A DNA stretch of 64,000 bases from Panorpa germanica (lineage: Eukaryota > Arthropoda > Insecta > Mecoptera > Panorpidae), in assembly GCA_963678705.1 (NCBI GenBank), contig OY783209.1:17298001-17362000 (forward strand). Reading direction: 5' to 3'. A program made the position numbers and the translations under genes. Below are positions 1 to 33,105 of this stretch, in pieces. How positions within the stretch are numbered: the stretch's first letter is position 1; every line of letters begins with the position of its first letter. The notes under the pieces are model-generated. The model had not been told where the DNA came from, did no database searches, and saw only the letters and a list, made by a program, of their open reading frames with translations.

Positions 1-753
1 CTAACGTAATGTACTGAATCAATTTCAATGTCCAATTCAATCCTACCTAAAGAATTTACTCTACAGTTTGACAAACCACGTATTGTTATTTCAGAGTCAT
101 TTGATTTAACATTCTTTAATGTTTTAAAATAATCTTCGCGCACTGCTGATAAATCACTACCGGTATCTATTAAAGCATTTACATTACTCCTGTTATTAAC
201 ACAAATTGATTTTATCATTTCTACTTTCATAACATTATGCTCCGCTTTAACAGTTTTTATTTTAGTATTACAGTTTCGGCTAACATGTCCATAATTACCA
301 CAATTAAAACATTTATAACCCTTGTCTTTATCAGGACACACTTTAGATGAGTGTGATAAAGAACCACAATTAAAACATTTAATCTCCTCACCTGTTGTCT
401 CAATTTTAGTTTTGGTACCTGGCCTAGATCTCTTATCATAATCCTGGGTATCCATTTTCATTTTTTCATATTGTTCCAGCTTACGTCTAAGTTGTCCATT
501 ATTCTCAGCTCCATAAAGTATTACTTTGTTAACTGCACTGTCGCGAATGCCTGCTATGATATAATCCATAATAGCTGCTTCTTCGACGTCTGCTTGTCGA
601 GCTATATCTAAAATATCATACACTTATTGACGAATATTTTCACCTGATTTCTTCACCCTTTGTTCAAGCATTTTGTGAACCTGTGCGCTATTTAAACTCG
701 TATCGAATTCATCAATCAAATACGATTAAAATGTATCCCAATTTATTATCCTG
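1..753 (-). pseudogene. Ty3-type gag-protease, 3' portion of copy A (interrupted and decayed)
   Basis: Read on the minus strand, this matches the gag-protease frame of copy B (30859-33105) from the middle of the capsid region through two CCHC zinc knuckles (around 280-400) into an aspartyl protease with a DTGSD-type active site (around 150-175). It packaged element RNA and began polyprotein processing. The frame carries nonsense codons where copy B has sense codons, for example TAA at the conserved RQYVYD stretch (about 625) and TAA close to the insertion junction (about 725), so it is dead. The 5' half of the same gene continues at 13063 on the far side of the Polinton insertion. The 3' part of the element lies outside the window. 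Confidence 0.85.
748..753. repeat. Left 6-bp target site duplication (ATCCTG) of the Polinton-like element
   Basis: ATCCTG directly precedes the first base of the left arm (AGTAGATGAAG). The same six bases directly follow the last base of the right arm. Removing the element plus one copy of ATCCTG rejoins the gag reading of copy A (in copy B: accaggataataaattggg). Six-base duplications are the known signature of Polinton/Maverick integrases. Confidence 0.93.
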
Positions 754-798
754 AGTAGATGAAGAAAGCGGGTTCTAGGACAGTTTAGAAATTGAGAT

Positions 799-936
799 GT
801 AAAGTATTGTGGTGGGGATGCATATAGGTCACGGTATGAAGAAGGGGGCGTGGCTAGACAATGTTGGGTAAAGTATTGTGGAGGGGATGCATATAGGTTA
901 CGGTATGAAGAAGGGGGCGTGGCTAGACAATGTTGG
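799..936. repeat. 69-bp tandem duplication near the left Polinton tip
   Basis: Two consecutive units (799-867 and 868-936) share gtaaagtattgtgg, the ggcgtggctagacaatg stretch and the text between, with only a few differences. The right arm carries a single unit near 12950-13017, so this is a left-arm expansion after the palindrome formed. Confidence 0.85.
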
Positions 937-1262
937 GGGTAATAGTGGGGTAATATGAAAGAGTGAGATAGCGATAATAAGTATTACGTGTGTGTTAGTA
1001 TTGGCGTAATTATTGCATTCTTCGTCAATTTCCGGAAACCAATCGTTTATGTTCGTGTCCTAGATGTATCTGTACTATATACTTATATGGTTTAGAAGAT
1101 GATGACGTCATTACAGCTTTTATCTGTTGGTACATTCTCTACAATACCCAAGGTTATGAGTGAGAAAGCAATAGTAGTAAAGAGTAAAATACCGATATTA
1201 ATTCTTATGTTTGATTTGTTATTGGTTATAAGATTATGACGTTGTAGGTGCAAAAATCGTTT

Positions 1263-1445
1263 ATGTTCGTATCCTCGATGTGCCTGTGGATGATGACGTT
1301 AATATATATTCCCACTTATGCATTTTTATGTATGTATGCATATGTAAGGAGATTCTGTTGTTGGAGGTGGTATTTAATATGGAGTGGTAGAGATGGTAAA
1401 TTAATGCATAAATGTCATTTAAATAGAGATGATGTTGAGCTGTAA
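1263..1445 (+). CDS. Small hydrophobic ORF (unknown), left arm
   Basis: This ORF encodes about 60 residues from the first in-frame ATG. The N-terminal half is hydrophobic and aromatic (LWMMTLIYIPTYAFLCMYAY), compatible with one membrane segment. The rest is basic and Cys/Trp-rich, followed by a polar tail ending in DDVEL. The right arm keeps the same frame (12440-12622) with one obvious change. Since the arms are nearly identical everywhere, this conservation is weak evidence for coding. No family was recognised. It may be a membrane peptide or chance open frame in the terminal region. Confidence 0.3.
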   Translation: MFVSSMCLWMMTLIYIPTYAFLCMYAYVRRFCCWRWYLIWSGRDGKLMHKCHLNRDDVEL

Positions 1446-1488
1446 TTACAGAGTAATGTTTTCTTAGTTCAAGCTAAAGTTTAATAGT

Positions 1489-1803
1489 ATGAACGGATTT
1501 AAGAATATTCCATGCGTAACATGGTTATTGGATTCGGGGGATATACGCGTCGGCATTGACAGTGAAGATAGATATTATGTGCAGGATATAACTGACGATT
1601 TTGATATAGATGACTGTGATTTAGAGGATATGACGGATGAAGAAATAATAATAGGTCACGAAGAAATTGAAATACAGGAAAAAGATTCTGATGTGGAAAT
1701 CATAGAATTATTAGACGATGATAATGAAGTTATTGAAATATTAGACTCTGACGATGAAATTGTAGAAGTGTTAGACTCTGATGATGAAATTGTAAAAGTA
1801 TAA
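1489..1803 (+). CDS. Small acidic protein with tandem SUMO-interaction-like motifs, left arm
   Basis: This is a 104-residue protein with an ATG start. An N-terminal globular-looking part (about residues 1-40, GVT/CVTWLLDSGDIRVGID region) is followed by a very acidic tail. The tail contains three successive units that each pair a short aliphatic beta-like run with acids: VEIIELLDDD (about residue 69), VIEILDSDDE (about 81) and IVEVLDSDDE (about 92), then a terminal IVKV. Aliphatic tetrads followed by Asp/Ser/Glu are the established form of SUMO-interacting motifs, and the DSDDE runs look like casein kinase 2 sites. I infer a SUMO-binding or chromatin/PML-directed accessory factor; an acidic nucleic-acid mimic is the alternative. 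The right arm has a full-length copy with about four substitutions. An AATAAA lies about 40 bp downstream. Confidence 0.7.
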   Translation: MNGFKNIPCVTWLLDSGDIRVGIDSEDRYYVQDITDDFDIDDCDLEDMTDEEIIIGHEEIEIQEKDSDVEIIELLDDDNEVIEILDSDDEIVEVLDSDDEIVKV

Positions 1804-1911
1804 CATAGTGGTTAATGCATATTTTTTTATGTAAAATTATATAAATAAATGAACTTTTAAAAACAATTGTGATTTATATTTTGATTTTGAAACTGAAATA
1901 TATAAGTTACA

Positions 1912-2148
1912 ATGGATAACGGTTGAAAGATTATTAAGCATATAAGAACAATTATTGAACATTTGAATAGTTCAAATTATTTAAGTATTCAGTGGAAAAA
2001 GTGGTCTGATTATAATAAAATAAATGTAAAGTTGTTAAATAAGTTATTAAAAAATAATAAAAATACCTATTCAATTGGATATAAGCGAAGCATTGAAAGC
2101 AATATAAGTGTCTTAAAATATTTTCAAACATTGTTAGAACTTGCTTAA
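1912..2148 (+). pseudogene. Unknown Polinton ORF, N-terminal frame, left arm (stop at codon 5)
   Basis: An ATG at 1912 opens a frame that reads MDNG and then meets TGA at 1924-1926. The right-arm copy has TGT there, so the stop is a left-arm mutation. Beyond it the frame stays open to 2148 and encodes a polar, Lys/Asn-rich, probably helical segment (SIQWKKWSDYNKINVKLL). It overlaps the next ORF by a few bases in the +1 frame, with the same arrangement in both arms. The pair may be one gene read through a frameshift or joined by splicing. No homologue was recognised; in Polintons this area usually holds lineage-specific or capsid-related genes. Confidence 0.45.
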
Positions 2149-2827
2149 TATATCTAATTGTATAACAGTGACATTAAAAAATTATAATTTGTGTTCTAAA
2201 TTAGTGGATAAATTTTTATATCAAGTGACTGCAGTTCCATTTTTATTTAATGAAGCACCTATATTATTAAAAAAAGATATGTATTTAATCAAAATAGGTT
2301 TAAATTGTATTAATCAGTTTGAACCAGAAATTTACATATATATTAAATATAATTTCGGACTAAAGTTAAATTTATGTGATTATTTTGAGCTTATAGAGCA
2401 TATTAAGCAATTGATTAATATGTTTAATGGTCAATTGGTAATACCATCGAATATATTAATTGGAACAAACTATAAAATAAATATATTTAATCCAAATAGT
2501 ATTGCAATTAATTCAAATTGTAAAACTCAAATATCAGTATTTTTAAATATTTTTGATTTAATACATTTCTTATCCTTAAATGATTATATTAATGCTATTG
2601 GTAAACATTTTTCTAAACTGCAAATTGATTTGTTTAATACATATAATATATTTTTAAATAGTATTGTAATGTATTTAAAAAATAAAAATATTGGTGTTTC
2701 GAAAGAGATTTTGACTCAATTTTTATTTTACGAATGTGAAGAGTTAAATTCTAATGATATATTATTAAAAATGATAGTAATTTCAAACATGTCGTATATA
2801 TTAGAAGAAATATCAAAACTATTGTAA
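2141..2827 (+). CDS. Unknown Polinton protein (about 228 codons), left arm
   Basis: This is a long open frame without an ATG at its beginning. It opens at 2138 just after an in-frame TAG, and the first ATG is near 2279. The product is rich in Asn, Ile and Leu, with alternating hydrophobic stretches (FEPEIYIYIKYNFGLKLNLC; IFDLIHFLSLNDYINAIGKH). There is no transmembrane signal or recognisable catalytic motif. The 3' end is convergent with the Cys-rich ORF across a 50-bp AT-rich gap that has AATAAA-like signals on both strands. In the right arm the last quarter is replaced by unrelated residues because of the 586-bp deletion. It is possibly the C-terminal part of a larger protein that begins at 1912. 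Function unknown. Confidence 0.5.
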   Translation: MLNISNCITVTLKNYNLCSKLVDKFLYQVTAVPFLFNEAPILLKKDMYLIKIGLNCINQFEPEIYIYIKYNFGLKLNLCDYFELIEHIKQLINMFNGQLVIPSNILIGTNYKINIFNPNSIAINSNCKTQISVFLNIFDLIHFLSLNDYINAIGKHFSKLQIDLFNTYNIFLNSIVMYLKNKNIGVSKEILTQFLFYECEELNSNDILLKMIVISNMSYILEEISKLL

Positions 2828-2883
2828 TTACTTAATTTATAATATATATATATATAAATTTAAAATGTATATAATTCTTTTAT

Positions 2884-3249
2884 TTATTTATTTGTTAGGG
2901 TATAACTACATCCATTAGAATCATAATATAACATATAATTACAATCATAACAGTTTCTTATTTGACATGGAGGACCATCTCTTTGTATGTTTCCTTTGTT
3001 ATAATGTTTGTAACATAATCGACGTCCTTGTATATTTTGATTTTCTTTTAAATACATTGGAAGCCGGTTCCAGTTTTGTTCAATATCGGTAGAGAACATT
3101 ATATAATGCAAGAAAAACTCTGTCGGTAAATAATGTAATTCTTCATCAGTAAGATTTTCTAGTAAACACTCATTTTCTTTATATTTTTTTAAAATAGCTC
3201 CAACTTTTGAAATCGTTTTCGAAACTTGTTCATGATCATTTAAACCCAT
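2884..3249 (-). CDS. Cys-rich 121-residue protein, present only in the left arm
   Basis: This ORF starts ATGGGTTTAAAT on the minus strand, divergent from the ATPase. The N-terminal two thirds are charged and helical-looking (residues about 1-75, including ENLTDEELHYLPTEFFLHYI). The C-terminal third is basic and Cys-rich (RRLCYKHYN, then PPCQIRNCYDCNY and a final GC), consistent with a small zinc-binding fold. Its start lies in the last unit of an 11-bp repeat series that recurs in the element's spacer, suggesting shared control. The right arm lost the whole gene. No family was recognised; a DNA-binding or transcription-related accessory factor is a guess. Confidence 0.55.
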   Translation of the reverse strand: MGLNDHEQVSKTISKVGAILKKYKENECLLENLTDEELHYLPTEFFLHYIMFSTDIEQNWNRLPMYLKENQNIQGRRLCYKHYNKGNIQRDGPPCQIRNCYDCNYMLYYDSNGCSYTLTNK

Positions 3250-3291
3250 TACGTTTAATTTACGTTGAGTTTACGTTCAAATTACGTTCCC
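3246..3291 (-). promoter_or_regulatory. Four 11-bp repeats overlapping the start of the Cys-rich ORF
   Basis: Read on the minus strand, four consecutive 11-mers run gaacgtaattt, gaacgtaaact, caacgtaaatt, aaacgtaatgg. The last contains the ATG of the Cys-rich ORF. The same 11-bp unit forms the spacer array at 7093-7190. The phase equals about one DNA turn, as expected for stacked protein binding sites. Confidence 0.6.
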
Positions 3292-3367
3292 ATATAATAT
3301 TTTCATATATAAAGATTAAATATTTAAAACGTATTTTATTACTTTATAACACATGCCTGGTTAAACA

Positions 3368-4069
3368 ATGAAGTTTATAAAGCAAAAAGAAACTCTTTCT
3401 GTAAAAAATATTGATAATCAAAGTAATAATTACACTAATAATTCAAAACATGGATCACTATTACCAAATGACATTAGATGCATTATTTGTGGACCTTCAA
3501 ACTGTGGAAAAACTAATGTTATGTTTAATCTAATTGAACATCCAAATGGGTTGCGATTTAAAAATATATACATTTATTCAAAATCTTTATATCAACCAAA
3601 ATATAAAATATTACAACAAATTATGAAGAATATTAATGGTATGGGATACTATACATACACTGACAATGAAGAGATTATTAGACCTGAAGATGCTAGCCCA
3701 AATTCTATATTCATATTTGATGATGTTGCTTGCGATAAACAAAATAATATTCGAAATTTTTTTAGCATGGGCCGTCATAATTTGATAGACTCTTTCTATT
3801 TATGTCAGACTTACAGCAAAATTCCAAAGCAATTAATACGGGATAATACTAATTTTATTATATTATTCAAGCAAGATGACTTAAATTTAAAGCATATATA
3901 TGATGATTATGTTAACTTTGACTTTCCAAGTTTTCTAGAGTTTAAACAAGTTTGTAATTTATGTTGGGATTCAAATAAATATTCCTTTATGGTAATAGAT
4001 AAAAATAGTGACTTAAATAACGGGCGATACAGAAAAGGATTTGATATGTTTTTAGATATAACCAAGTAA
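3368..4069 (+). CDS. Packaging ATPase (FtsK/HerA-type, Polinton A32-like), left arm
   Basis: This is a 233-residue P-loop ATPase with an ATG start. Walker A is GPSNCGKT (about residues 42-49) and Walker B is FIFDDV (about 115-120). An RHNLIDSFYLCQTYSKIPKQ stretch (around residue 138) fits the sensor region of the poxvirus A32-like genome-packaging ATPases that are a hallmark of Polintons and related DNA viruses. It would pump element DNA into a capsid, yet no capsid gene is present. It is divergent from the Cys-rich ORF across a 118-bp intergenic region, and the polymerase frame follows about 17 bp downstream. The frame is intact here but frameshifted in the right arm. The left copy reads DDVAC where the right reads DDVGC. 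Confidence 0.85.
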   Translation: MKFIKQKETLSVKNIDNQSNNYTNNSKHGSLLPNDIRCIICGPSNCGKTNVMFNLIEHPNGLRFKNIYIYSKSLYQPKYKILQQIMKNINGMGYYTYTDNEEIIRPEDASPNSIFIFDDVACDKQNNIRNFFSMGRHNLIDSFYLCQTYSKIPKQLIRDNTNFIILFKQDDLNLKHIYDDYVNFDFPSFLEFKQVCNLCWDSNKYSFMVIDKNSDLNNGRYRKGFDMFLDITK

Positions 4070-4086
4070 TCTTTACAATAATATTT

Positions 4087-6531
4087 GTGATATATGGAGA
4101 TTTTGAAACATTATTAAAACCCATTAGTACTTGTTATCCTGAAACTAATACATCATTTTCAAATAATATTCAAATTCATGAACCATATTCTTTTGCTTAT
4201 TATATTAAATGTTCCTTAAATGATTCCTTAAGTAAGTTTGTTACGTACAGAGGTATTAATTGCGTTAAAGTATTTATTGAAACAATAACTGAAGACGCTA
4301 AACAAATTTATAAAATCTTAAATAAAGTAAAGCCTTTAAATAAATTATCTGATTGGCAAAAACAGGAATATGATGAAGCTTCTATTTACCATATTTGTGA
4401 AGGTATCCTCAATGGTGATAAAGTGTTAGATCATTGTCACTTAACTGGTAATTACCGAGGAGCTGCTCATAATCATTGCAATTTAAAATTTACAATTAAA
4501 AAGTTTATACCTGTCATATTCCATAACTTAAGTAATTACGATAGCCATATAATTGTAAAAGAATTAGGTAATGATAGTGAAAAAATTAAAGTTATTCCAG
4601 AAAATAAGGAAAAGTATATATCTTTTACGAAACATATTTTGGTGGAATCAAAAGTCGATAAAAATGATAAAGTTCATAACTGCTATATTAAACTTAGATT
4701 TATTGATTCTTTACGATTTATGCATTCTAGTTTAAAAACACTTGCAAAAAATTTATTATCAGAACAATTTTTCGAATTAAAAAAATTCTATCCGAATGAA
4801 AATCATTTTAATTTATTAAAACGTAAAGGTGTATTTCCTAATGAATATGTAAATAGTAGGGATATGTTCAATGAATCTGACTTGCCATCTCAAAATAATT
4901 TTTATAGCTCACTTAATGGCTGTAATATATCTGACGATGCTTACAATCATGCCAAAATGGTTTGGTATGCATTTGAAATGAAAACATTAGGGGAATATTC
5001 AGACTTATATTTAAAGATCGATGTTCTGTTGTTAACAGATATTTTTGAAAATTTTCGAGATGTGTGCTATAAAACATATAATTTAGATCCCTGTCAATAT
5101 TATACAGCACCAGGACTATCTTGGGATGTTATGTTAAAGTATACAAGTATTGAATTAGAACTTTTAACAGATATTGATATGTTACATTTTATTAAAAAAG
5201 GTATAAGAGGTGGAATATCACAATGCTCTCACAGACATGGAATTGCAACTAATAAATATATGTCCAATTATGATTCAAATAAAGATTCTCAATATTTAAT
5301 GTATTGGGATGCAAATAACTTATATGGTTGGGCTATGAGTCAATATTTACCACATGAGGGATTTAAATGGTTAGATACATATAAATTACAAACATTTAAT
5401 GTAGAAGCTATTGAAGATAACTCAGATGTTGGTTATATATTAGAAGTCGATTTAAGATATCCTAATTATTTGCACGATGAACACAATGATCTACCTTTCT
5501 GTGCTAAAAATATTAAACCACCTTGCATTAAAACAAATGACGTTAAATTAATACCAAATCTAAATAACAAGTATAATTATGTGCTTCACTATAGATCGTT
5601 AAAGCAATGTCTTAAAAATAATCTGAAAATAGATAAAATTCATAGAATTTTGGAATTTAAACAGTCTGATTGGTTAAAAAGTTATATTGATCTAAATACA
5701 TTAAAAAGAAAGAACTCTGCAAATACATTTGAGAAAGACTTTTTTAAATTAATGAATAATTCAGTTTATGGGAAAACAATGGAGAATGTAGATAAACGTG
5801 TCGATGTAAAGTTAATAACTCATTGGGATAATATAGGACATAAAATGGGTGCTAATACACTTATAAGTAAACCAAACTATCATAGTTGTTCTATATTTCA
5901 TGAAAACTTAGTTGCTATTCAAATGCAAAAACTTAAAGTTTTTTATAATAAACCATTGTATTTAGGATTAAGTGTACTTGATATATCAAAAACTTTAATA
6001 TACGATTTTCATTATGATTTCATCAAAAAAGTCTATAAAGGTAATGCTAAATTGTTGTATACAGATACAGATTTATTAATATATCAAATTAAAACAGATG
6101 ATATTCATGACGATATTAAGTGTAATCTAGATAAATTTGATACACCTAATTATACATTTAATAATGAATTTTCATTACCTTTAATGAACAAAGCTAAATT
6201 AGGCTTAATGAAAGATGAATGCGCGGGTAGTATAATTTGGGAGTTTGTTGGGTTAAGGTCAAAAATGTATGCAATTGATATTGAGGGTTCATGCACAGCT
6301 AAAGCAAAAGGAATTAAGAAAAATATTGTAAACAAATTCAATATTAAAGATTATGTAAATTGTTTATCTCAGGATAACATATTATTGATCACAATGAATA
6401 CCTTTAAATCGATTAAGCATACAATTTATACTCAAATGATAAGTAAAGTAGGTCTTAGTGGAAATGATAATAAAAGATATGTATTAACTGATGGTATAAG
6501 TACTTTAGCACATGAACATTATAAAATTTAG
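4087..6531 (+). CDS. polB: Protein-primed type B DNA polymerase, left arm (814 codons, altered motif C)
   Basis: This is a replicative polymerase of the protein-primed family B. Visible motifs are Exo I DFET near residue 5, an HNH-like zinc segment DHCHLTGNYRGAAHNHCN (about 115), Exo II FHNLSNYDSH (about 145), Exo III YLKIDVLLLTDIFENFR (about 308), palm motif A DANNLYGWAMSQ (about 408), motif B NNSVYGKTMEN (about 556) and motif C YTDTDL (about 658). Two features suggest it is compromised. Motif C normally reads DTDS, as it does in the right arm, and the Ser is Leu here. The open frame also has no ATG before Exo I (it opens at 4045 and the first codon counted is GTG), so an N-terminal region is missing or spliced on. 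It is convergent with its twin across the spacer. Confidence 0.9.
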   Translation: MIYGDFETLLKPISTCYPETNTSFSNNIQIHEPYSFAYYIKCSLNDSLSKFVTYRGINCVKVFIETITEDAKQIYKILNKVKPLNKLSDWQKQEYDEASIYHICEGILNGDKVLDHCHLTGNYRGAAHNHCNLKFTIKKFIPVIFHNLSNYDSHIIVKELGNDSEKIKVIPENKEKYISFTKHILVESKVDKNDKVHNCYIKLRFIDSLRFMHSSLKTLAKNLLSEQFFELKKFYPNENHFNLLKRKGVFPNEYVNSRDMFNESDLPSQNNFYSSLNGCNISDDAYNHAKMVWYAFEMKTLGEYSDLYLKIDVLLLTDIFENFRDVCYKTYNLDPCQYYTAPGLSWDVMLKYTSIELELLTDIDMLHFIKKGIRGGISQCSHRHGIATNKYMSNYDSNKDSQYLMYWDANNLYGWAMSQYLPHEGFKWLDTYKLQTFNVEAIEDNSDVGYILEVDLRYPNYLHDEHNDLPFCAKNIKPPCIKTNDVKLIPNLNNKYNYVLHYRSLKQCLKNNLKIDKIHRILEFKQSDWLKSYIDLNTLKRKNSANTFEKDFFKLMNNSVYGKTMENVDKRVDVKLITHWDNIGHKMGANTLISKPNYHSCSIFHENLVAIQMQKLKVFYNKPLYLGLSVLDISKTLIYDFHYDFIKKVYKGNAKLLYTDTDLLIYQIKTDDIHDDIKCNLDKFDTPNYTFNNEFSLPLMNKAKLGLMKDECAGSIIWEFVGLRSKMYAIDIEGSCTAKAKGIKKNIVNKFNIKDYVNCLSQDNILLITMNTFKSIKHTIYTQMISKVGLSGNDNKRYVLTDGISTLAHEHYKI

Positions 6532-7092
6532 TACTAATTTTAAGTTAAGTTTAAGTTTTGTATAAATTTATATCTGTTTTAGTTAAGATAATTAAAATGT
6601 ATATTTATATAAAAATTTAAAAATAGCATATTTGTAAACAAATAATAATATATAAACACAAACCATTGAGTTTTATTATTATAAGATTTAATGTTTTAAT
6701 ACATCCATATAAAATAAGATACACATATTATATTAGTAATGTTTTGTTATATATAATTCTTATATGATTAACACTGGTCATAAGAGCTCTAATATATATG
6801 CATAGACATATTAATGTATGAGTATGCGTACATAAACTGGATGACAATTGTATACGTTATATGCAGGAGCAGTACCCAAATCAATTCATTAGTGAATGCA
6901 GGCATGTCAAAAAAACCAATATTTCATTTTTTATTATCATACCAACGTAATGGGAATGTAACTTGGAATATTGGAATAGTGGTGTAGGTTAGGTTACACA
7001 CCCGCATAGCGTGATTTATTTTAGAGCCCAAACCCAGGCCTAGTGGTTTTTTAAGTCAGTCAACATTGTGACATACAAACTTTAAATAGTTC

Positions 7093-7190
7093 GAACGTAA
7101 CTTGAACGTAATGGGAACGTAACTGAACGTAATGGGAACGTAACTTGAACGTAATGGGAACGTAACTGAACGTAATGGGAACGTAACGTA
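7093..7190. repeat. Array of about nine 11-bp units (GAACGTAA core)
   Basis: Units of 10-11 bp alternate between gaacgtaactt/gaacgtaact and gaacgtaatgg, giving a higher-order period of about 21-22 bp, and end in a degenerate gaacgtaacgtaa. Similar units lie at 6943-6964 and at the start of the Cys-rich ORF. An array of helically phased units fits an origin-binding or transcription-factor platform. Confidence 0.85.
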
Positions 7191-7215
7191 ATTCTAAAAT
7201 AAATACTCTACGTTA

Positions 7216-7524
7216 TTACGTCGTTGTTACTGTATTTGTTTCGTAGCTTTGTAGCTTCAAGAAACTACAGATTTTATATATAGCAGGTCGAGAACGGCTT
7301 TCTAGGGTTTCTGTACTATTTGCACCGATAAGGATCACATTATCGTTGGCAAAACATATGTCTACACAACCTTTCGAGTTAGAAACACAGTTCTCGTCGA
7401 ATACCATGTTCCAGAGCTCAGGCCCCATTACAGATCGCTGAGGACAACCTTTAGATAGTTGCCTTTTCATGGAACAATATTCGGTTTGTAAAATTAATGT
7501 TCGACAATGAAAATGGTTTTCCAT
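7216..7524 (-). pseudogene. Non-LTR reverse transcriptase remnant in the spacer
   Basis: The product contains SKGCPQRSVMGPELWNMVFD, the region between RT motifs of R1/LOA-type LINEs that usually reads KGCPQGS(V)LGP, followed by FANDNVILIGANST where the catalytic YADD/FADD is expected. The catalytic Asp pair is broken (AND) and only about 100 codons survive, so this is a dead fragment. It predates or accompanied formation of the element and is not part of a Polinton gene set. Confidence 0.65.
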
Positions 7525-7943
7525 AGCGCTGTAGACATACCTAGAGGTTTTTGCCGGCCTAATTCTTTAAAGGTCACTTGGCCACCAGACATTAGCAAAG
7601 GCACACTGAATTTCTATAAATATCTCATGTACATACTTGTACTTAAGCCTACTTACTTACCATTTGTTTGTTACCATTGATATTAGAGCTCTTATGACCA
7701 GTGTTAATCATATAAGAATTATATATAACAAAACATTACTAATAAAATATGTGTATCTTATTTTATATGGATGTATTAAAACATTAAATCTTATAATAAT
7801 AAAACTCAATGGTTTGTGTTTATATATTATTATTTGTTTACAAATATGCTATTTTTAAATTGTTATATAAATATACATTTTAATTATCTTAACTAAAACA
7901 GATATAAATTTATACAAAACTTAAACTTAACTTAAAATTAGTA

Positions 7944-10388
7944 CTAAATTTTATAATGTTCATGTGCTAAAGTACTTATACCATCAGTTAATACATATCT
8001 TTTATTATCATTTTCACTAAGACCTACTTTACTTATCATTTGAGTATAAATTGTATGCTTAATCGATTTAAAGGTATTCATTGTGATCAATAATATGTTA
8101 TCCTGAGATAACCAATTAACATAATCTTTAATATTGAATTTGTTTACAATATTTTTCTTAATTCCTTTTGCTTTAGCTATGCATGAACCCTCAATATCAA
8201 TTGCATACATTTTTGACCTTAACCCAACAAACTCCCAAATTATACTACCCGCGCATTCATCTTTCATTAAGCCTAATTTAGCTTTGTTCATTAAAGGTAA
8301 TGAAAATTCATTATTAAATGTATAATTAGGTGTATCAAATTTATCTAGATTACACTTAATATCGTCATATATATCATCTGTTTTAATTTGATATATTAAT
8401 GAATCTGTATCTGTATACAACAATTTAGCATTACCTTTATAGACTTTTTTGATGAAATCATAATGAAAATCGTATATTAAAGTTTTTGATATATCAAGTA
8501 CACTTAATCCTAAATACAATGGTTTATTATAAAAAACTTTAAGTTTTTGCATTTGAATAGCAACTAAGTTTTCATGAAATATAGAACAACTATGATAGTT
8601 TGGTTTACTTATAAGTGTATTAGCACCCATTTTATGTCCTATATTATCCCAATGAGTTATTAACTTTACATCGACACGTTTATCTACATTCTCTATTGTT
8701 TTCCCATAAACTAAATTATTCATTAATTTAAAAAAGTTTTTCTCAAATGTATTTGCAGAGTTCTTTCTTTTTAATGTATTTAGATCAATGTAACTTTTTA
8801 ACCAATCAGACTGTTTAAATTCCAAAATTCTATGAATTTTATCTATTTTCAGATTATTTTTAAGACATTGCTTTAACGATGTATAGTGAAGCACATAATT
8901 ATACTTGTTATTTAGATTTGGTATTAATTTAACGTCATTTGTTTTAATGCAAGGTGGTTTAATATTTTCAGCACAGAAAGGTAGATCATTGTGTTCATCG
9001 TGCAAATAATTAGGATATCTTAAATCGACTTCTAATATATAACCAACATCTGAGTTATCTTCAATAGCTTCTACATTAAATGTTTGTAATTTATATGTAT
9101 CTAACCATTTAAATCCCTCATGTGGTAAATATTGACTCATAGCCCAACCATATAAGTTATTTGCATCCTAATACATTAAAGATTGAGAATCTTTATTTGA
9201 GTCATAATTGGACATATATTTATTATTTGCAATTCCATGTCTGTGAGAGCATTGTGATATTCCACCTCTTATACCTTTTTTAATAAAATGTAACATATCA
9301 ATATCTGTTAAAAGTTCTAATTCAATACTTGTATACTTTAACATAGCATCCCAAGAAAGTCCTGGTGCTGTATAATATTGACAGGGATCTAAATTATATG
9401 TTTTATAGCACACATCTCGAAAATTTTCAAAAATATCTGTTAACAACAGAACATCGATCTTTAAATATAAGTCTGAATATTCCCCCAATGTTTTCATTTC
9501 AAATGCATACCAAACCATTTTGGCATGATTGTAATCATCGTCAGATATATTACAGCCATTAAGTGAGCTATAAAAATTATTTTGAGATGGCAAGTCAGAC
9601 TCATTAAGCATATCCCTACTATTTACATATTCATAAGGAAATACACCTTTACGTTTTAATAAATTAAAATGATTTTCATTCGGATAGAATTTTTTTAATT
9701 CGAAAAATTGTTCTGATAATAAATTTTTTGCAAGTGTTTCTAAACTAGAATGCATAAATCGTAAAGAATCAATAAATCTAAGTTTAGTATAGCAGTTATG
9801 AACTTTATCATTTGTATCGACTTTTGATTCCACCAAAATATGTTTCGTAAAAGATATATACTTTTCCTTATTTTCTGAAATAACTTCAATTTTTTCACTA
9901 TCATTACCTAATTCTTTTACAATTATATGGCTATCGTAATTACTTAAGTTATGGAATATGACAGGTATAAACTTTGGAATTGTAAATTTTAAATTGCAAT
10001 AATTATGAGCAGCTCCTCGGTAATTACCAGTTAAGTGACAATGATCTAACACTTTATCACCATTGAGGATACCTTCACAAATATGGTAAATAGAAGCTTC
10101 ATCATATTCCTGTTTTTGCCAATCAGATAATTTATTTAAAGGCTTCACTTTATTTAGGACTTTATAAATTTGTTTAGCGTCTTCAGTTATTGTTTCAATA
10201 AATACTTTAACGCAATTAATACCTCTGTACGTAACAAACTTACTTAAGGAATCATTAAAGGAACATTTAATAATATAAGCAAAAGAATATGGTTCATGAA
10301 TTTGAATATTATTTGAAAATGATGTATTAGTTTCAGGATAACAAGTACTAATGGGTTTTAATAATGTTTCAAAATCTCCATATATCAC
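7944..10388 (-). pseudogene. polB: Protein-primed type B DNA polymerase, right arm (nonsense before motif A)
   Basis: This is the twin of the left-arm polymerase, more than 95% identical by eye and with all the same motifs. The Trp codon directly before motif A (DANNLYGWAMSQ) is TAG here (9168-9170), splitting the frame into N-terminal 406 and C-terminal 398 codons. Motif C keeps the canonical YTDTDS. The two arms are therefore inactivated at different places, meaning their decay was independent after duplication. Other changes are scattered substitutions. As on the left, no ATG precedes the Exo I motif. Confidence 0.88.
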
Positions 10389-10419
10389 AATTATTATTGT
10401 AAAGATTACTTGGTTATAT

Positions 10420-11103
10420 CTAAAAACATATCAAATCCTTTTCTGTATCGCTATTTAAGTCACTATTTTTATCTATTACCATAAAGGAATATTTATTTGA
10501 ATCCCAACATAAATTACAAACTTGTTTAAACTCTAGAAAACTTGGAAAGTCAAAGTTAACATGATCATCATATATATGCTTTAAATTTAAGTCATCTTGC
10601 TTGAATAATATAATAAAATTAGTATTATCCCGTATTAATTGCTTTGGAATTTTGCTGTAAGTCTGACATAAATAGAAAGAGTCTATCAAATTATGACGGC
10701 CCATGCTAAAAAAATTTCGAATATTATTTTGTTTATCGCAACCAACATCATCAAATATGAATATAGAATTTGGGCTAGCATCTTCAGGTCTAATAATCTC
10801 TTCATTGTCAGTGTATGTATAGTATCCCATACCATTAATATTCTTCATAATTTGTTGTAATATTTTATATTTTGGTTGATATAAAGATTTTGAATAAATG
10901 TATATATTTTTAAATCGCAACCCATTTGGATGTTCAATTAGATTAAACATAACATTAGTTTTTCCACAGTTTGAAGGTCCACAAATAATGCATCTAATGT
11001 CATTTGGTAATAGTGATCCATGTTTTAAATTATTAGTGTAATTATTACTTTGATTATCAATATTTTTTACAGAAAGAGTTTCTTTTTGCTTTATAAACTT
11101 CAT
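10420..11103 (-). pseudogene. Packaging ATPase, right arm (C-terminal frameshift)
   Basis: This is identical to the left-arm ATPase through Walker A (GPSNCGKT) and Walker B (FIFDDVGCDK). Near 10450 four bases are missing compared with the left arm (aaatagcgata against aaataacgggcgata), so the last roughly 15 residues are replaced by SDTEKDLICF. The catalytic core is intact and the loss of a short tail may be tolerated. The start codon and upstream leader are the same as on the left for about 65 bp, up to the deletion junction. Confidence 0.8.
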
Positions 11104-11744
11104 TGTTTAACCAGGCATGTGTTATAAAGTAATAAAATACGTTTTAAATATTTAATCTTTATATATGAAGTCAAAATCTCTTTCGAAACACCAATATTTT
11201 TATTTTTTAAATACATTACAATACTATTTAAAAATATATTATATGTATTAAACAAATCAATTTGCATTTCAGAAAAATGTTTACTAATAGCATTAATATA
11301 ATCATTTAAGGATAAGAAATGTATTAAATCAAAAATGTTTAAAAATACTGATATTTGAGTTTTACAATTTGAAATAATTGCAATACTATTTGGATTAAAT
11401 ATATTTATTTTATAGTTTGTTCCTATTAATATATTCGATGGTATTACCAATTGATCATTAAACATATTAATCAATTGCTTAATATGCTCTATAAGCTCAA
11501 AATAATCACATAAATTTAACTTTAGTCCGAAATTATATTTATTATATATGTAAATTTCTGGTTCAAACTGATTAATACAATTTAAACCTATTTTGATTAA
11601 ATACATATTTTTTTTTAATAATATAGGTGCTTCATTAAATAAAAATGGAACTGCAGTCACTTGATATAAAGATTTATCCACTAATTTAGAACACAAATTA
11701 TAATTTTTTAATGTCACTGTTATACAATTAGATATATTAAGCAA
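11100..11744 (-). pseudogene. Unknown Polinton protein, right arm, truncated by the 586-bp deletion
   Basis: This is the counterpart of the frame at 2141-2827. After GVSKEILT the deletion joins it to the former ATPase upstream region, which adds an unrelated tail (SYIKIKYLKRILLLYN) and brings the stop into the ATPase start region. Like the left copy it has no ATG at its beginning. The residue changes relative to the left arm are scattered. Confidence 0.6.
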
Positions 11745-11973
11745 GTTCTAACAATGTTTGAAAATATTTTAAGACACTTATATTGCTTTCAATGCTTCGC
11801 TTATATCCAATTGAATAGGTATTTTTATTATTTTTTAATAACTTATTTAACAACTTTATATTTATTTTATTATAATCAGACCACTTTTTCTACTGAATAA
11901 TTAAATAATTTGAACTATTTAAATGTTCAATAATTGTTCTCATATCCTTAATAATCTTACAACCGTTATCCAT
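11738..11973 (-). pseudogene. Unknown Polinton ORF, N-terminal frame, right arm (internal stop)
   Basis: The ATG at 11973 reads through codon 5 (TGT, where the left arm has TGA) but meets TAG at the codon that is Trp in the left arm (SIQWKKW). The overlap with the downstream +1 frame is the same as in the left arm. Confidence 0.45.
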
Positions 11974-12081
11974 TGTAACTTATATATTTCAGTTTCAAAA
12001 TCAAAATATAAATCACAATTGTTTTTAAAAGTTCATTTATTTATATAATTTTACATAAAAAAATATGCATTAACCACTATG

Positions 12082-12396
12082 TTATACTTTTACAATTTCA
12101 TCATCAGAGTCTAACACTTCTACAATTTCATCGTCAGAGTCTAATATTTCAATAACTTCATTATTATCGTCTAATAATTCTATGATTTCCACATCAGAAT
12201 CTTCTTCCTGTATTTCAATTTCTTCGTGACCTATTATTATTTCTTCATCCGTCATATCCTCTGAATCACAGTCATCTATATCAAAATCGTCAGTTATATC
12301 CTGCACATAATATCTATCTTCACTGTCAATGCCGACGCGTATATCCCCCGAATCCAATAACCATGTTACGCCTGGAATATTCTTAAATCCGTTCAT
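12082..12396 (-). CDS. Small acidic protein with tandem SUMO-interaction-like motifs, right arm
   Basis: This is a full-length, 104-residue copy of the left-arm protein, ATG to stop. Differences include GVTWLLD for CVTWLLD, DCDSEDM for DCDLEDM, IQEEDSD for IQEKDSD and LDDNNE for LDDDNE. All three aliphatic-acidic units and the terminal IVKV are retained. It is the only gene besides the small hydrophobic ORF that is uninterrupted in both arms. Confidence 0.7.
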   Translation of the reverse strand: MNGFKNIPGVTWLLDSGDIRVGIDSEDRYYVQDITDDFDIDDCDSEDMTDEEIIIGHEEIEIQEEDSDVEIIELLDDNNEVIEILDSDDEIVEVLDSDDEIVKV

Positions 12397-12439
12397 ACTA
12401 TTAAACTTTAGCTTGAACTAAGAAAACATTACTCTGTAA

Positions 12440-12622
12440 TTACAGTTCAACATCATCTCTATTTAAATGACATTTATGCATTAATTTACCATCTCTACCA
12501 CTCCATATTAGATACCACCTCCAACAACAGAATCTCCTTACATATGCATACATACAGAAAAATGCATAAGTGGGAATATATATTAACGTCATCATCCACA
12601 GGCACATCGAGGATACGAACAT
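12440..12622 (-). CDS. Small hydrophobic ORF (unknown), right arm
   Basis: This is the counterpart of 1263-1445, differing at one residue in the hydrophobic stretch (AFFCMYAY against AFLCMYAY). The same caveats apply: short, unrecognised, and possibly chance coding. Confidence 0.3.
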   Translation of the reverse strand: MFVSSMCLWMMTLIYIPTYAFFCMYAYVRRFCCWRWYLIWSGRDGKLMHKCHLNRDDVEL

Positions 12623-13062
12623 AAACGATTTTTGCACCTACAACGTCATAATCTTATAACCAATAACAAATCAAACATAAGAATTAATATCGGTATCTCA
12701 CTCTTTACCACTATTGCTTTCTCACTCATAACCTTGGGTATTGTAGAGAATGTACCAACAGATAAAAGCTGTAATGACGTCATCATCTTCTAAACCATAT
12801 GAGTATATAGTACAGATACATCTAGGACACGAACATAAACGATTGGTTTCCGGAAATTGACGAAGAATGCAATAATTACGCCTATACTAACACACACGTA
12901 ATACTTATTATCGCTATCTCACTCTTTCATATTACCCCACTATTACCCCCAACATTGTCTAGCCACGCCCTCTTCTTCATACCGTGACCTATATGCATCC
13001 CCACCACAATACTTTACATCTCAATTTCTAAACTGTCCTAGAACCCGCTTTCTTCATCTACT

Positions 13063-13068
13063 ATCCTG
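13063..13068. repeat. Right 6-bp target site duplication (ATCCTG)
   Basis: This immediately follows the last base of the right arm and matches the left copy exactly. Confidence 0.93.
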
Positions 13069-29638: not shown

Positions 29639-30590
29639 TGTGGGTTATTTTTTTTAAGGAGTAATATTAAGTTAGATTATATTTAGTTTTAAGTAATAGT
29701 AAGAAACTGTAAACTAGGGTAGAGATCTTTGCTAAGAACGGAGGTATATTTAAATGTGTAAATAAACCAGTAAAAGACACTAAAACCGTTCAATGGTAAA
29801 TGCTTAGCCGTTCACTTTTGATGTCGAGCGTACGTCTCAGAGAACGTGGCATATACAACTGTTCGCTAACTATGAACGTGATGAGACATGTTTTGGGCGA
29901 GGCACAATATAAAGATTGTTATATGGTGTACAGAGTTTTTATAAAAGCAAATGGCGATAGAAATATGTAATGATTATGTATGGTCGTTATTGTGTGTTTT
30001 ATAATTAAGTTAACTTTATTACGGTGTAATAATTGTTATTTTGATCAGTGTTTTTGTTAGAGTTAGGCAGCAAGTGTAATGTTTAGTACTAAGGTGTATT
30101 TTCATTGAAATCATTGTGCTGATAACTATAGACAATTGCAACTGCGTATTATGTATTGAGACGTAAAATATTGTGAAGAGACATTTTAATCTAAGTACTG
30201 TATTTAATCTAGTGTATTTTGTTGTGAATATAATTAAGATTGATTAACTTTATTTAGATATAATTTTATGACTTTGATAAGTGATTAAACTATTAATAGC
30301 CAAATTATGTGTTTACTCGTTTTAAAGGAACTATATTGTTGTATTGTACATTAACCTAGGCTGATGTTAATTGTAACTTATAATTGTGGGAAAGTACCTA
30401 CAAATTAGGATCTCAACAGATGGTTAGAGATATAACCTACAAATTGTGAGCTATCAACAAGAATTGAATAGTTCTAGGCTGCATAATAGAATCGCAACAC
30501 GTGGTTGTAAATTCTAACCTGCAAAGCGGAGTCTGTACCGGGTTGGTAATAGATTCAAAAACTACTAATGTAGACGATAAAAAGTCTACA
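29639..30590 (+). repeat. 5' LTR of copy B
   Basis: It starts TGTGGGTTATTTTTTTTAAGG and ends AAAGTCTACA; 952 bp. Its last 200 bp contain three degenerate copies of the module that includes the PBS context (starts at 30398, 30437 and 30519). Confidence 0.92.
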
Positions 30591-30593
30591 AAT

Positions 30594-30611
30594 TGGGGGC
30601 TCAACCGGGAT
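30594..30611 (+). promoter_or_regulatory. Primer-binding site of copy B
   Basis: tgggggctcaaccgggat begins three bases after the LTR. It differs by a couple of bases from the well-known proline-tRNA primer site form. A near copy (tggggtctctcaaccggga) follows at 30645. Confidence 0.7.
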
Positions 30612-30858
30612 ATCCTTGGATGGTTAGGGGGTCTATCTACAAATTGGGGTCTCTCAACCGGGATAAGGGCGAAATCAAAAATATTCAGTTAAGATTATTT
30701 TTAACCTTAGAACCAGACTAATTGATCAATGGGATGAGGGCGAAATCAAAAATATTCAGCTAAGATTATTTTTCACCTTAGAACCAGAGGAATCAAGAGG
30801 AAAACTTAGTGTACAGTTTGCTCATTAAAGTAATTGTACAGCAGTGAAAATTTTAACA
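30612..30858 (+). promoter_or_regulatory. Copy B leader with duplicated modules
   Basis: It contains a second PBS-like module, then two tandem copies of a roughly 57-bp unit (gggat[a/g]agggcgaaatc to accttagaaccaga; starts near 30660 and 30731), ending just before the gag ATG at 30859. It probably includes packaging signals. Copy A has related modules. Confidence 0.6.
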
Positions 30859-33105
30859 ATGACACAGGAATTAGACAATTTGTCAGTGGCAGAGCTACGG
30901 CAAGAACTCAATTTTGTTGGACTTAGTCAACGTGGGAATCGTGCAGAATTATTGTCAAGAATGAACTCATTTAATAGCCGTGTCGGTGAACAGAATAATA
31001 GGTCTGTAAACAATGAAACAGTCAATAAAACTAATTATACATTTTTAGATTTAGAATTGGCTTTACCTAAATATGATGGACTTAAAAATGTCAGATTGTG
31101 GATTAAACAATTTGATGATTTCTGCGACCAGGCAGAAATAATAGATGCAAAAATAGATGCAAAATACAGATATTTGTATGCCAGGAGATTGTTGACTGAT
31201 ACAGCAAAACAATTTGTTAATTTTGAAACCAGGATAATAAATTGGGATACATTTAAATCGTATTTGATTGATGAATTTGATACGAGTTTAAATAGCGCAC
31301 AGGTTCACAAAATGCTTCAACAGAGGGTGAAGAAAGCTGGTGAAAGTATCCGTCAATATGTGTATGATATTTTAGATATAGCTAGACAAGCAGACGTCGA
31401 AGAAGCAGCTATCATGGATTATATCATAGCAGGAATTCGCAACAGTGCAGTTAATAAAGTAATACTTTATGGAGCTGAGAATATTGGACAACTTAGACGT
31501 AAGCTGGAACAATATGAAAAAATGAAAATGGATACCCAGGACTATGATAGAAGATCTAGGCCAGGTACAAAAACTAAAATCGAGACAACAGGTGAGAAGA
31601 TTAAATGTTTTAATTGTGGTTCGATATCACACTCATCTAAAGTGTGTCCTGATAAAGGCAAGGGTTATAAATGTTTTAATTGTGGTAATTATGGACATGT
31701 TAGCCGAAACTGTAATACTAAAATAAAAACTGTTAAAGCGGAACATAATGTTATGAAAGTTGAAATGATAAAATCAATTTGTGTTAATAACAGGAGTAAT
31801 GTAAATGCTTTAATAGACACTGGCAGTGATTTGTCAGCAGTGCGGGAAGATTATTTTAAAACATTAAAGAATGTTAAATTATATGACTCTGAAATAACAA
31901 TACGTGGTTTATCAAACTCAAGAGTAAATTCTTTAGGTAGAATTGAATTGGACATTGAAATTGATTCAGAACCTTACGTGGGTTATTTTGAAGTGTTACC
32001 ATCTCATGCAATGCATATGAACATGGTGATAGGATTGGACATTATAGCTAAAGCTAAAGTAGTTATTGATAAAACCGGGGTTAAATTTTATAAACTTTAT
32101 AGTGATAAAGATGTAGATGAAAGTGAGGTTAAACAATTAATGACAATGAAAATAGACTATGGTGATAAAGAAAGTGAATTAGATTTATCTCATATAAACG
32201 ATAAAATTGTTGTTAATAAAATACACGAGTCAGTGGACAATGACAAACGTAAAGAGTTACGCAACTCTGAAAGTGTAAAGACAATTATATTGAAAAATGA
32301 TACTCCTATATTTTCTAGATCGCTTAAACTACCACCTGCAGATCGACTAGTTGTTGCAGAGCAGCGGGGTGAAGGGTTAGAAAAGGATGTCATACAGGCA
32401 GCCCAGGAAATGAATGACCTAGGTTGTGCAGTGAAACAAGACATTGTTCGTCTATCTAAAGACAAGGTAAAAGCAGCCAAGCATTTTCCGAAGCCGAAGA
32501 TGAGGAAACAAGGCAATGTTCGTCCCTCTAAGGATAAGGTAAAAGCAGACAAGCATTTTCCGAAGCCGAAGAAGACGCAACAAGCAAAGAATTATACAGG
32601 GAAGTGTATAAAAGAAAATGAATTGAAGATTGGGGTTAAAATGAATACTAATCAAGACACTGTTCGTTCCTCGAAGGATAAGGATGAAGCCATTAAGCAT
32701 TTTCCGAAGCCAAAGGAGAGGATACAAGCAGAAGAAATACAAAATGAGTTTGTAGGAAAACGTAAGAAGCTGAGAGAAGAGGATAAAGGAATTATTCTAG
32801 AAGTTCAGCAAGAATACAGAATTAGCTACGGTAGAAAATGTAAGACAACAAGCAAAAAGTATAAACATATTCTCGTTAAAGTAAATGCTTTTACAAAGTT
32901 TGTTTGGTTGTTACCTACTAAAGCAACAGGAGCTAAAGCTAAAGCTAAAACCAAAGGACCATACAAAATAACGAGAATTAAAGGAAATGATCGTTATGAC
33001 GTGGAGGAAGCAGGAGAGTGTGAAGGGCCAGACAGGACTTCTACATCTGCAGACAAGATGACATCAAGGGCAAGGATGGATGTAGCAACTGAGGACAGTT
33101 ACTAG
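30859..33105 (+). CDS. gag: Gag-protease fusion with Lys-rich repeat and integrase scraps (748 codons)
   Basis: The ATG at 30859 gives MTQELDNLSVAELRQEL, a SAP-like DNA-binding motif (residues about 8-42). Capsid follows (about 60-225), two CCHC knuckles (CFNCGSISHSSKVC about 250; CFNCGNYGHVSRNC about 272), retropepsin LIDTGSDLSAV (about 318) and the RT entry motif PIFSRSLKLPPADR (about 485). Next are three copies of SKDKVKAxKHFPKPK (about 533, 557, 606), an integrase-core start (KHILVKVNAFTKFVWLLPT about 669) and a C-terminal tail (GPYKITRIKGNDRYDVEE). The whole frame has no stop. I infer a non-autonomous element that still makes particles and uses RT and integrase from relatives. The repeat may be a nuclear-localisation or nucleic-acid-binding patch. 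Confidence 0.88.
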   Translation: MTQELDNLSVAELRQELNFVGLSQRGNRAELLSRMNSFNSRVGEQNNRSVNNETVNKTNYTFLDLELALPKYDGLKNVRLWIKQFDDFCDQAEIIDAKIDAKYRYLYARRLLTDTAKQFVNFETRIINWDTFKSYLIDEFDTSLNSAQVHKMLQQRVKKAGESIRQYVYDILDIARQADVEEAAIMDYIIAGIRNSAVNKVILYGAENIGQLRRKLEQYEKMKMDTQDYDRRSRPGTKTKIETTGEKIKCFNCGSISHSSKVCPDKGKGYKCFNCGNYGHVSRNCNTKIKTVKAEHNVMKVEMIKSICVNNRSNVNALIDTGSDLSAVREDYFKTLKNVKLYDSEITIRGLSNSRVNSLGRIELDIEIDSEPYVGYFEVLPSHAMHMNMVIGLDIIAKAKVVIDKTGVKFYKLYSDKDVDESEVKQLMTMKIDYGDKESELDLSHINDKIVVNKIHESVDNDKRKELRNSESVKTIILKNDTPIFSRSLKLPPADRLVVAEQRGEGLEKDVIQAAQEMNDLGCAVKQDIVRLSKDKVKAAKHFPKPKMRKQGNVRPSKDKVKADKHFPKPKKTQQAKNYTGKCIKENELKIGVKMNTNQDTVRSSKDKDEAIKHFPKPKERIQAEEIQNEFVGKRKKLREEDKGIILEVQQEYRISYGRKCKTTSKKYKHILVKVNAFTKFVWLLPTKATGAKAKAKTKGPYKITRIKGNDRYDVEEAGECEGPDRTSTSADKMTSRARMDVATEDSY

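What the first reader, a model, noticed from the sequence alone, without database searches (positions are those of the whole stretch)
754..13062. A head-to-head palindromic Polinton carrying only replication and packaging genes
Two arms of 6.0 and 5.4 kb, each with polymerase B and packaging ATPase, mirror each other around a 0.9 kb spacer. The whole is bounded by a perfect 6-bp TSD. Polintons normally have short terminal repeats and carry integrase, protease and capsids; none is visible. Protein-primed linear genomes are known to make inverted dimers by snap-back replication, as in defective adenovirus genomes. This could be an integrated defective or satellite genome mobilised by a helper's integrase.
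Basis: partly seen in the sequence, partly recalled or inferred. Interest (0 to 1): 0.9.

Follow-up and report, generated by a model that had tools for sequence, protein, structure and literature searches.

The report
Mirror-image satellite family of Polinton transposons
A 12-kb piece of a virus-like jumping element (a Polinton) sits in this genome as a mirror image of itself; it belongs to a family of such mirror-image copies, which have lost the genes needed to copy and insert themselves and probably borrow them from more complete relatives in the same genome.

Summary
The palindrome is real. The element is window 754-13062 (12,309 bp), with AG...CT ends and a perfect 6-bp TSD (ATCCTG), inserted in a retroelement gag gene whose uninterrupted paralogue lies in the same window. 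Its arms differ by 1.43%, evenly spread and without coding constraint. It is not unique: in its genome (464 Mb) 18 of 40 scored ATPase hits form nine facing pairs. Three other palindromes (P3, C2, C5) have their own perfect TSDs, so palindromes moved as units. Elsewhere the mirror symmetry runs to a hairpin-like tip; the window's "spacer" is inner left arm, that tip, and a foreign host repeat. PolB lacks its N-terminal region, and 1 of 18 arm pieces keeps the 828-aa frame. Longer non-palindromic relatives with the same ends carry, between them, integrase, double-jelly-roll capsid, longer PolB and ATPase: the likely helpers. In five copies, arms share 24 private changes (random pairings: at most 1), so one arm is copied onto the other; copy P9 is an exception. 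Most likely this is a non-autonomous, trans-mobilised Polinton lineage whose palindrome is renewed by fold-back replication. Fold-back is inferred; inter-arm gene conversion is the main rival.

The parts
748..753 (.). Left target-site duplication ATCCTG
754..6800 (+). Left arm as paired with the right arm; begins AGTAGATGAAGAAAGC
786..923 (+). 69-bp terminal unit duplicated in tandem in the left arm only
1468..1803 (+). Acidic ORF, 111 aa, with a 30-bp tandem repeat in the DNA (1683-1801); counterpart 12082-12417 (-)
2138..2827 (+). ORF of 229 aa, no Pfam match; counterpart 11100-11747 (-), altered at its end by the deletion in the right arm
2716..3301 (.). 586-bp stretch absent from the right arm (gap at about 11169); holds a 128-aa open frame 2884-3270 (-)
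3249..3289 (-). Array of 11-bp GAACGTAA-type units, the same motif as at the palindrome tip
3365..4069 (+). Packaging ATPase (Pox_A32), 234 aa
4045..6531 (+). PolB (DNA_pol_B_2), 828-aa open frame, lacking the N-terminal region present in relatives
6801..7193 (+). Inner end of the left arm, with the 11-bp array 7093-7188; mirrored in other copies
7194..7215 (.). Palindrome tip, 22 nt, identical to the tip loop of copy P6
7216..7674 (.). Foreign host repeat with a weak, below-cut-off reverse-transcriptase-like remnant, in place of the inner end of the right arm
7675..13062 (-). Right arm
7944..10430 (-). Right-arm PolB, split by an in-frame stop into 9168-10430 and 7944-9167
10420..11106 (-). 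Right-arm ATPase, shortened at its C-terminus; 4-bp gap relative to the left arm
13063..13068 (.). Right target-site duplication ATCCTG
30419..31979 (.). Paralogous retroelement gag with the empty target site (about 31230-31242); 94.8% and 78.8% identical to the two flanks

Best explanation
The window holds one old copy of a multi-copy, non-autonomous Polinton lineage whose genome is one long inverted repeat: TIR, arm, hairpin-like tip, arm, TIR. Shown: the palindrome was inserted whole, with an exact 6-bp duplication. Other palindromes sit at other loci with their own 6-bp duplications. The element's polymerase is truncated and unconstrained. Longer relatives in the same genome have the same ends and encode, between them, integrase, capsid and a longer PolB. 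In five copies counted, the two arms share private mutations. Inferred: the palindrome replicates and integrates with proteins supplied in trans by the longer Polintons. During protein-primed strand-displacement replication a displaced strand folds back at the tip and primes its own copying, so each new palindrome is made from a single arm; this renews the palindrome and makes the arms evolve together. The integrase of a longer relative then inserts the linear palindrome by its normal ends.
For: TSD and empty-site paralogue. Perfect 6-bp TSDs at 4 of 5 palindrome-type copies whose two ends I hold: window ATCCTG, P3 CTTGGG, C2 TGTTTT, C5 AGTACA; the fifth, C46, has none. Nine facing pairs = 18 of the 40 scored ATPase hits. 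Interiors self-complementary: 7,017 bp at 99.4% (P2), 7,238 bp at 98.1% (P6), 6,895 bp at 98.6% (P7). Short tips. Relatives with the same termini and TSD: rve+Chromo integrase, A32 ATPase and a 1,089-aa PolB ORF (C210), DJR capsid and PLA2-like protein (C1:2.51 Mb). N-terminal truncation of the window PolB. Of 24 arm-shared pol changes 1 is synonymous, 22 non-synonymous, 1 a stop: no constraint, so replication in trans. A pol-breaking 112-bp duplication is on both arms of P2, P7 and P8. Concerted arms in five copies (window, P2, P6, P7, P8): 24 shared private sites against mean 0.135 and maximum 1 in 200 random cross-copy pairings of the same ten arms. In P3/P4, two copies of one insertion locus, L-L (2) and R-R (5) distances are smaller than within-copy L-R (6 and 11), against frequent later conversion.
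Against: No replication intermediate, transcript or read was available. P9: its two arms differ at 13 of 564 positions, more than either differs from other copies, so it does not show concerted arms. P3/P4, P5 and P9 were left out of the shared-site count. In the tree the window's own two arms are not sisters: the left arm groups with the nearby C6 copies, and the window has 2 shared private sites against 29 arm-specific ones. Mismatches between arms are uneven in the inner parts of P2, P6, P7 and C5 and the outer parts of P7 and C2 (KS p 0.01 or less); tip or array misalignment may explain this, but gene conversion would too. C46 lacks a TSD. C6a/C6b are single arms in direct orientation. The C210 PolB ORF did not match PF03175 at E 0.01; it is called PolB from 49% identity to the window PolB.
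Confidence: 0.6

Rival explanations
1. The palindrome arose once, moves as an ordinary non-autonomous element with very long TIRs, and its arms are kept alike by chromosomal gene conversion or gap repair, as proposed for foldback-type elements (recalled).
For: Uneven mismatch distribution along the arms in inner P2, P6, P7, C5 and outer P7, C2; concerted arms need only some copying between arms; P9 arms are not alike.
Against: Window arms diverge evenly (KS p 0.735). In the duplicated locus P3/P4, arms stayed closer to their positional counterparts than to their partner arm. P8 has 9 shared private sites and no arm-specific one, as expected from complete renewal before insertion.
Confidence: 0.28
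2. Each palindrome formed in place, from a normal Polinton insertion, by a break and copying of one half onto the other.
For: Would also keep the original TSD; the window's interior contains host repeat DNA.
Against: C2 and C5 share the same unusual arm architecture (97.8-98.7% alike) at different loci with different TSDs; P3 and the window share the ATPase-PolB junction and tip at different TSDs. The same mosaic would have to form repeatedly.
Confidence: 0.06
3. Assembly artefact or two separate head-to-head insertions.
For: Palindromes are a known assembly hazard (recalled).
Against: Arm-specific indels and 1.43% divergence, exact TSDs around the whole unit, empty-site paralogue, repeated occurrence with different TSDs.
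Confidence: 0.03

Closest known systems
Polintons / Mavericks
   Same: AGT/AG-type ends, 6-bp TSD, PolB and A32-type ATPase; longer relatives in this genome (14.1-16.3 kb for C210, C1:2.51 Mb and C3:17.68 Mb) add, between those scanned, integrase (C210) and DJR capsid (C1:2.51 Mb).
   Different: The whole element is an inverted repeat. Intact vertebrate Mavericks have TIRs of 46-1,447 bp (mean 402) and sizes of 12.7-24.6 kb (PMC8097293, section 7 read). No integrase or capsid domain was found here and PolB is truncated.
Palindromic defective adenovirus genomes (incomplete particles; 'SYREC' symmetric recombinants)
   Same: Protein-primed linear genome; mirror-image dimer of one end, dependent on a helper. 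Recalled from memory; the search for it found no paper in the library, and a wider one listed none on it by title.
   Different: Here they are chromosomal, multi-copy, with integration TSDs and arms that evolve together in the copies counted.
Foldback-type DNA transposons (FB, Galileo, Tetris)
   Same: Very long inverted repeats making up most of the element (search listing and starts of abstracts only; the rest recalled).
   Different: Different ends and enzymes; no PolB or packaging ATPase (recalled).
Self-complementary or rolling-hairpin parvovirus genomes (AAV)
   Same: Hairpin-primed replication of a genome with inverted terminal repeats, with a helper virus (PMC11575299, start of abstract in a search listing; the rest recalled).
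   Different: Single-stranded DNA virus with other replication genes (recalled).

Membership tests
Polinton / Maverick | Terminal inverted repeats with AG...CT (often (AGT)2) ends | tested here: met
   AGTAGATG / CATCTACT; relatives AGTAGGGT; compared with PMC8097293 section 7
Polinton / Maverick | 6-bp target-site duplication | tested here: met
   ATCCTG on both sides, empty-site paralogue
Polinton / Maverick | Protein-primed PolB, complete | tested here: not met
   PF03175 found, but the N-terminal region present in C210, C216 and L001 is missing and the right-arm copy has a stop
Polinton / Maverick | A32-type packaging ATPase | tested here: met
   PF04665 E 1.3e-8, left arm
Polinton / Maverick | rve integrase within the element | tested here: not met
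   None among the ORFs scanned; present in relative C210
Polinton / Maverick | Double-jelly-roll capsid and protease within the element | tested here: not met
   None among the ORFs scanned; DJR in relative C1:2.51 Mb; no protease domain matched in the ten relatives' ORFs scanned either
Satellite / defective genome dependent on a helper | Lacks its own mobility genes but shares ends with a more complete relative in the same host | tested here: met
Satellite / defective genome dependent on a helper | Replicated, packaged or integrated by helper proteins | not testable with these tools
   inferred from shared ends, TSD length and an unconstrained pol
Foldback-type transposon (FB/Galileo) | P-type or other cut-and-paste transposase | tested here: not met
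   No transposase domain in the ORFs scanned; ends and TSD are Polinton-type

The most novel reading that the evidence does not exclude
A lineage of hairpin-genome satellite Polintons: the heritable unit is one arm, which folds back at a dedicated tip and is copied into a full palindrome in every cycle. The lineage replicates, integrates and perhaps is packaged entirely with proteins of complete Polintons, and has done so long enough to form subfamilies.
Probability: 0.4. Interest if true: 0.88.

Novelty: new variant of a known kind. Interest (0 to 1): 0.76.

Why it matters
Protein-primed replication of Polintons is inferred from their genes, and virions of Mavericks had not been observed as of 2021 (PMC8097293, start of abstract in a search listing). 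A palindromic lineage whose arms share private mutations would be a genomic fossil of the replication process: renewal from one arm leaves exactly such a signature. It would also show that Polintons carry satellites that use their integrase and polymerase in trans, as defective viruses do, and it gives a simple tell-tale (element-length inverted repeats with a 6-bp TSD) to look for in other genomes.

Tried and rejected
Protein homologue searches could not be made. Scans of viral contigs for close relatives of PolB, ATPase and the 229-aa ORF, and for three degenerate motif patterns, gave no relative; nor did tblastn of PolB against phages or a sequence search of solved structures. One genome-contig scan found a PolB relative on a 6.6-kb contig filed under a bacterial MAG (L001, JANQHM010000025.1), used only for the PolB comparison.

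Rejected: 'spacer = captured loop'; other copies show that the arm continues into it. Rejected: 'ATPase under selection'; its low variation shows no excess of synonymous changes (0 synonymous, 10 non-synonymous, 1 stop in 9 matched arms), and its loci were chosen by an ATPase hit, which biases the comparison. Rejected: palindrome unique to this window.

Not done: a genome-wide count of palindrome axes (genome search did not complete); both ends, and so TSDs, of P2, P5, P6, P7, P8 and P9 and the right end of P4; TSDs of C135 and C1:9.95 Mb; partner arms of the 19 remaining ATPase hits (two of them, C15 and C9, were used as 3.6-kb loci only). Host species not identified.
Full report
OBSERVATION. 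The window carries an inverted repeat with arms 754-6800 and 7675-13062 and 874 bp between them. Aligned, the arms differ at 77 of 5,388 positions (1.43%); the right arm lacks 69 bp (a tandem duplication near the left end), 586 bp (left 2716-3301) and 4 bp. The unit runs from 754 to 13062, starts AGTAGATG and ends CATCTACT, and is flanked by ATCCTG on both sides. The flanks are the two halves of a retroelement gag gene. A second copy of that gene in the same window (about 30419-31979; 94.8% and 78.8% identical to the two flanks) is uninterrupted at this place; joining the flanks minus one ATCCTG reproduces it. So the palindrome entered as one unit.

GENES. The left arm has a PolB (PF03175) and, just upstream, an A32-type ATPase (PF04665); the right arm has both by alignment, and PF03175 in the half of PolB that matched. 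There are also an acidic ORF and a 229-aa ORF without Pfam matches. No integrase, capsid or protease domain appeared in the ORFs scanned. Between the arms, 12 synonymous changes in about 743 sites and 45 non-synonymous changes in about 3,277 sites give a ratio near 0.85 (summed over four ORFs): the arms have decayed without coding constraint. The PolB frame begins 16 residues before its exonuclease motif (motif recalled). Relatives have more upstream: the 1,089-aa PolB ORF of C210 aligns from its residue 282 (49% identity over 817 aligned columns); a 92% identical stretch in C216 has 119 further residues upstream in its open frame, with a zinc-finger-like segment by eye; L001, 45% identical, has about 300. 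Against this naming: PF03175 did not match the C210 or L001 ORFs at the limits used; they are called PolB from alignment to the window's. The eight other paired copies share the window's ATPase-PolB junction, so the truncation is old. Of 18 arm pieces examined (two of them short), one, the window's left arm, keeps the 828-aa frame.

A FAMILY. The window lies in a 464-Mb genome (G000). An ATPase probe gave 40 scored hits out of 547 first-look candidates; 18 of the 40 form nine facing pairs, one of them the window's. I fetched pieces of the other eight. Interiors are self-complementary over their whole fetched length in P2 (7,017 bp, 99.4%), P6 (7,238 bp, 98.1%) and P7 (6,895 bp, 98.6%). P3, P4, P5, P8 and P9 show shorter or interrupted mirrored blocks: longest 1,959 bp at 99.95% (P3), 1,959 bp at 99.6% (P4), 565 bp at 99.5% (P5), 2,256 bp at 100% (P8), 743 bp at 97.4% (P9). 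P4 has the same left flank as P3 and is a duplicate of that locus.

THE TIP. In other copies mirror symmetry runs on past window position 6800 to a short tip. The smallest loop with at least 23 of 25 flanking pairs is 22 nt in P6, 48 in P2 and P7 (the two loops are nearly reverse complements of each other, by eye), 61 in P8, 69 in P3 and P4, and 111 in C5. The window contains the P6 tip at 7194-7215. Hence 6801-7193, with its 11-bp GAACGTAA array, is the inner left arm. From about 7216 to 7674 lies a host repeat that also follows the tip in C6a and C6b (99.3%) and abuts or flanks other elements of the family. The window's asymmetry is secondary damage.

MOBILITY. Five palindrome-type copies have both ends in hand. 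Four have perfect 6-bp duplications (window ATCCTG, P3 CTTGGG, C2 TGTTTT, C5 AGTACA; the left end of C5 has one changed base, ACTAGGGT); C46 has none. C2 and C5 have the same arm architecture, different from the window's. Aligned blocks are 97.8-98.7% alike between the two loci and 98.7-99.7% alike between arms within each; C2 lacks an inner part of its right arm, and C5 has a 7.5-kb retroelement in its left arm. Formation in place at each locus is hard to square with this.

RELATIVES WITH THE MISSING GENES. A probe from the element's end gave 42 listed matches (40 of 952 candidates scored). Among the elements fetched around such matches, C210, C135, C1:2.51 Mb, C3:17.68 Mb, C216 and C1:9.95 Mb are not palindromes. 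C210, C1:2.51 Mb and C3:17.68 Mb have perfect 6-bp TSDs and C216 a 5/6 match; C135 and C1:9.95 Mb could not be tested. TIR matches in the five measured are about 0.2-0.8 kb. Pfam, run on ten ORFs from C210 and C1:2.51 Mb, finds rve plus Chromo (integrase) and A32 ATPase in C210, and a PLA2-like domain and a double-jelly-roll capsid (E 1.7e-61) in C1:2.51 Mb. Frames in C135, C1:2.51 Mb and C1:9.95 Mb open with residues that include the start of the C210 integrase ORF, and frames in C135, C210 and C216 open like the DJR ORF (by eye). TIR identity between the window and C210 is about 94-97%. These are the candidate helpers; whether any is active is unknown.

CONCERTED ARMS. Over positions 3900-6273 (P8 over 2,195 columns), arms within a copy differ by 0 (P8), 4 (P2), 6 (P3), 11 (P4), 11 (P6), 22 (P7) and 37 (window). 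Between copies, leaving out the duplicates P3/P4 and C6a/C6b, values run from 13 to 44. Over the shorter 3900-4463, P5 arms differ by 3 and P9 arms by 13, the latter more than either P9 arm differs from any other copy: P9 does not show concerted arms. Counting, in five copies, sites where both arms share a base found in none of the other arms: window 2, P2 2, P6 6, P7 5, P8 9, in all 24; arm-specific sites 29, 4, 10, 20 and 0. Two hundred random pairings of the same ten arms across copies gave a mean of 0.135 shared sites and a maximum of 1. A pol-disrupting 112-bp duplication sits on both arms of P2 (twice), P7 and P8, and on the left arm of P9. So changes that arise on one arm reach the other. 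Of the 24 shared changes 1 is synonymous, 22 non-synonymous and 1 a stop; of the 63 arm-specific ones 12, 47 and 4: pol was already a passenger while the lineage was multiplying. In the window, mismatches are evenly spread (KS p 0.735), as for two identical arms that aged in place. They are uneven in inner P2, P6, P7 and C5 and outer P7 and C2, even in the middle part of C5 (p 0.148), and too few to test in P8, inner C2 and outer P2; this leaves room for gene conversion. In the duplicated locus P3/P4 the positional counterparts are closer (2 and 5) than the two arms of a copy (6 and 11), which speaks against frequent conversion after insertion. In the tree the window's arms are not sisters; the left arm groups with C6a/C6b, 37-50 kb away on the same contig.

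MECHANISM. Shown: insertion as a unit, a family, a gene set that cannot suffice, copying between arms in the five copies counted. Inferred: helper Polintons supply PolB and integrase; a displaced single strand folds at the tip and is copied, so each new palindrome is a doubled arm. Palindromic defective adenovirus genomes (recalled) are the nearest precedent. On re-reading for this report, the P9 result led me to lower my confidence from 0.62 to 0.60 and raise the gene-conversion rival from 0.27 to 0.28.

LITERATURE. Intact vertebrate Mavericks have TIRs of 46-1,447 bp, (AGT)2 or (AG)3 ends and 6-bp TSDs (PMC8097293, section 7 and passages read). Ten searches were made. Those combining Polinton or Maverick with palindrom-, head-to-head, inverted dimer/duplication or defective interfering listed 20 of 44, 2 of 2, 15 of 16 and 2 of 2 papers; none listed describes palindromic Polintons by title or start of abstract. 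In PMC12721341 and PMC6431247 I read passages only; the first gives TIRs of 232-858 bp in a dinoflagellate's polinton-like viruses. The library holds open-licence papers only, so this is not proof of novelty.

Noticed in passing
window 7216-7674; L048:6591-7047; L041:3-170; L037:3-222; L046:1-196: One host repeat (weak RT-like remnant) flanks or interrupts several members of the family, as if it were a preferred target.
   Followed up: partly
window 7093-7188 and 3249-3289; L039:7553-7677; L036: An 11-bp GAACGTAA array marks the palindrome tip in several copies and some junctions between Polinton pieces, and recurs in the longer relatives; it may be a recombination or regulatory site.
   Followed up: partly
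L036:819-4950: The C216 element carries three ATPase genes in a row with the same array near them.
   Followed up: no
window 754-7221 versus C2/C5 (L044, L033): Window-type and C2/C5-type arms are different mosaics of Polinton pieces, so at least two palindromic architectures exist in this genome.
   Followed up: partly
window 1683-1801: The acidic ORF repeats a motif resembling SUMO-interacting motifs (recalled, not tested).
   Followed up: no
L001 (JANQHM010000025.1): A Polinton-like PolB with a Bro-N gene on a contig filed under a bacterial MAG; probably mis-binned.
   Followed up: partly
L042:5969-6841: A longer Polinton encodes a phospholipase A2-like domain, as parvovirus capsid proteins do (recalled).
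   Followed up: no
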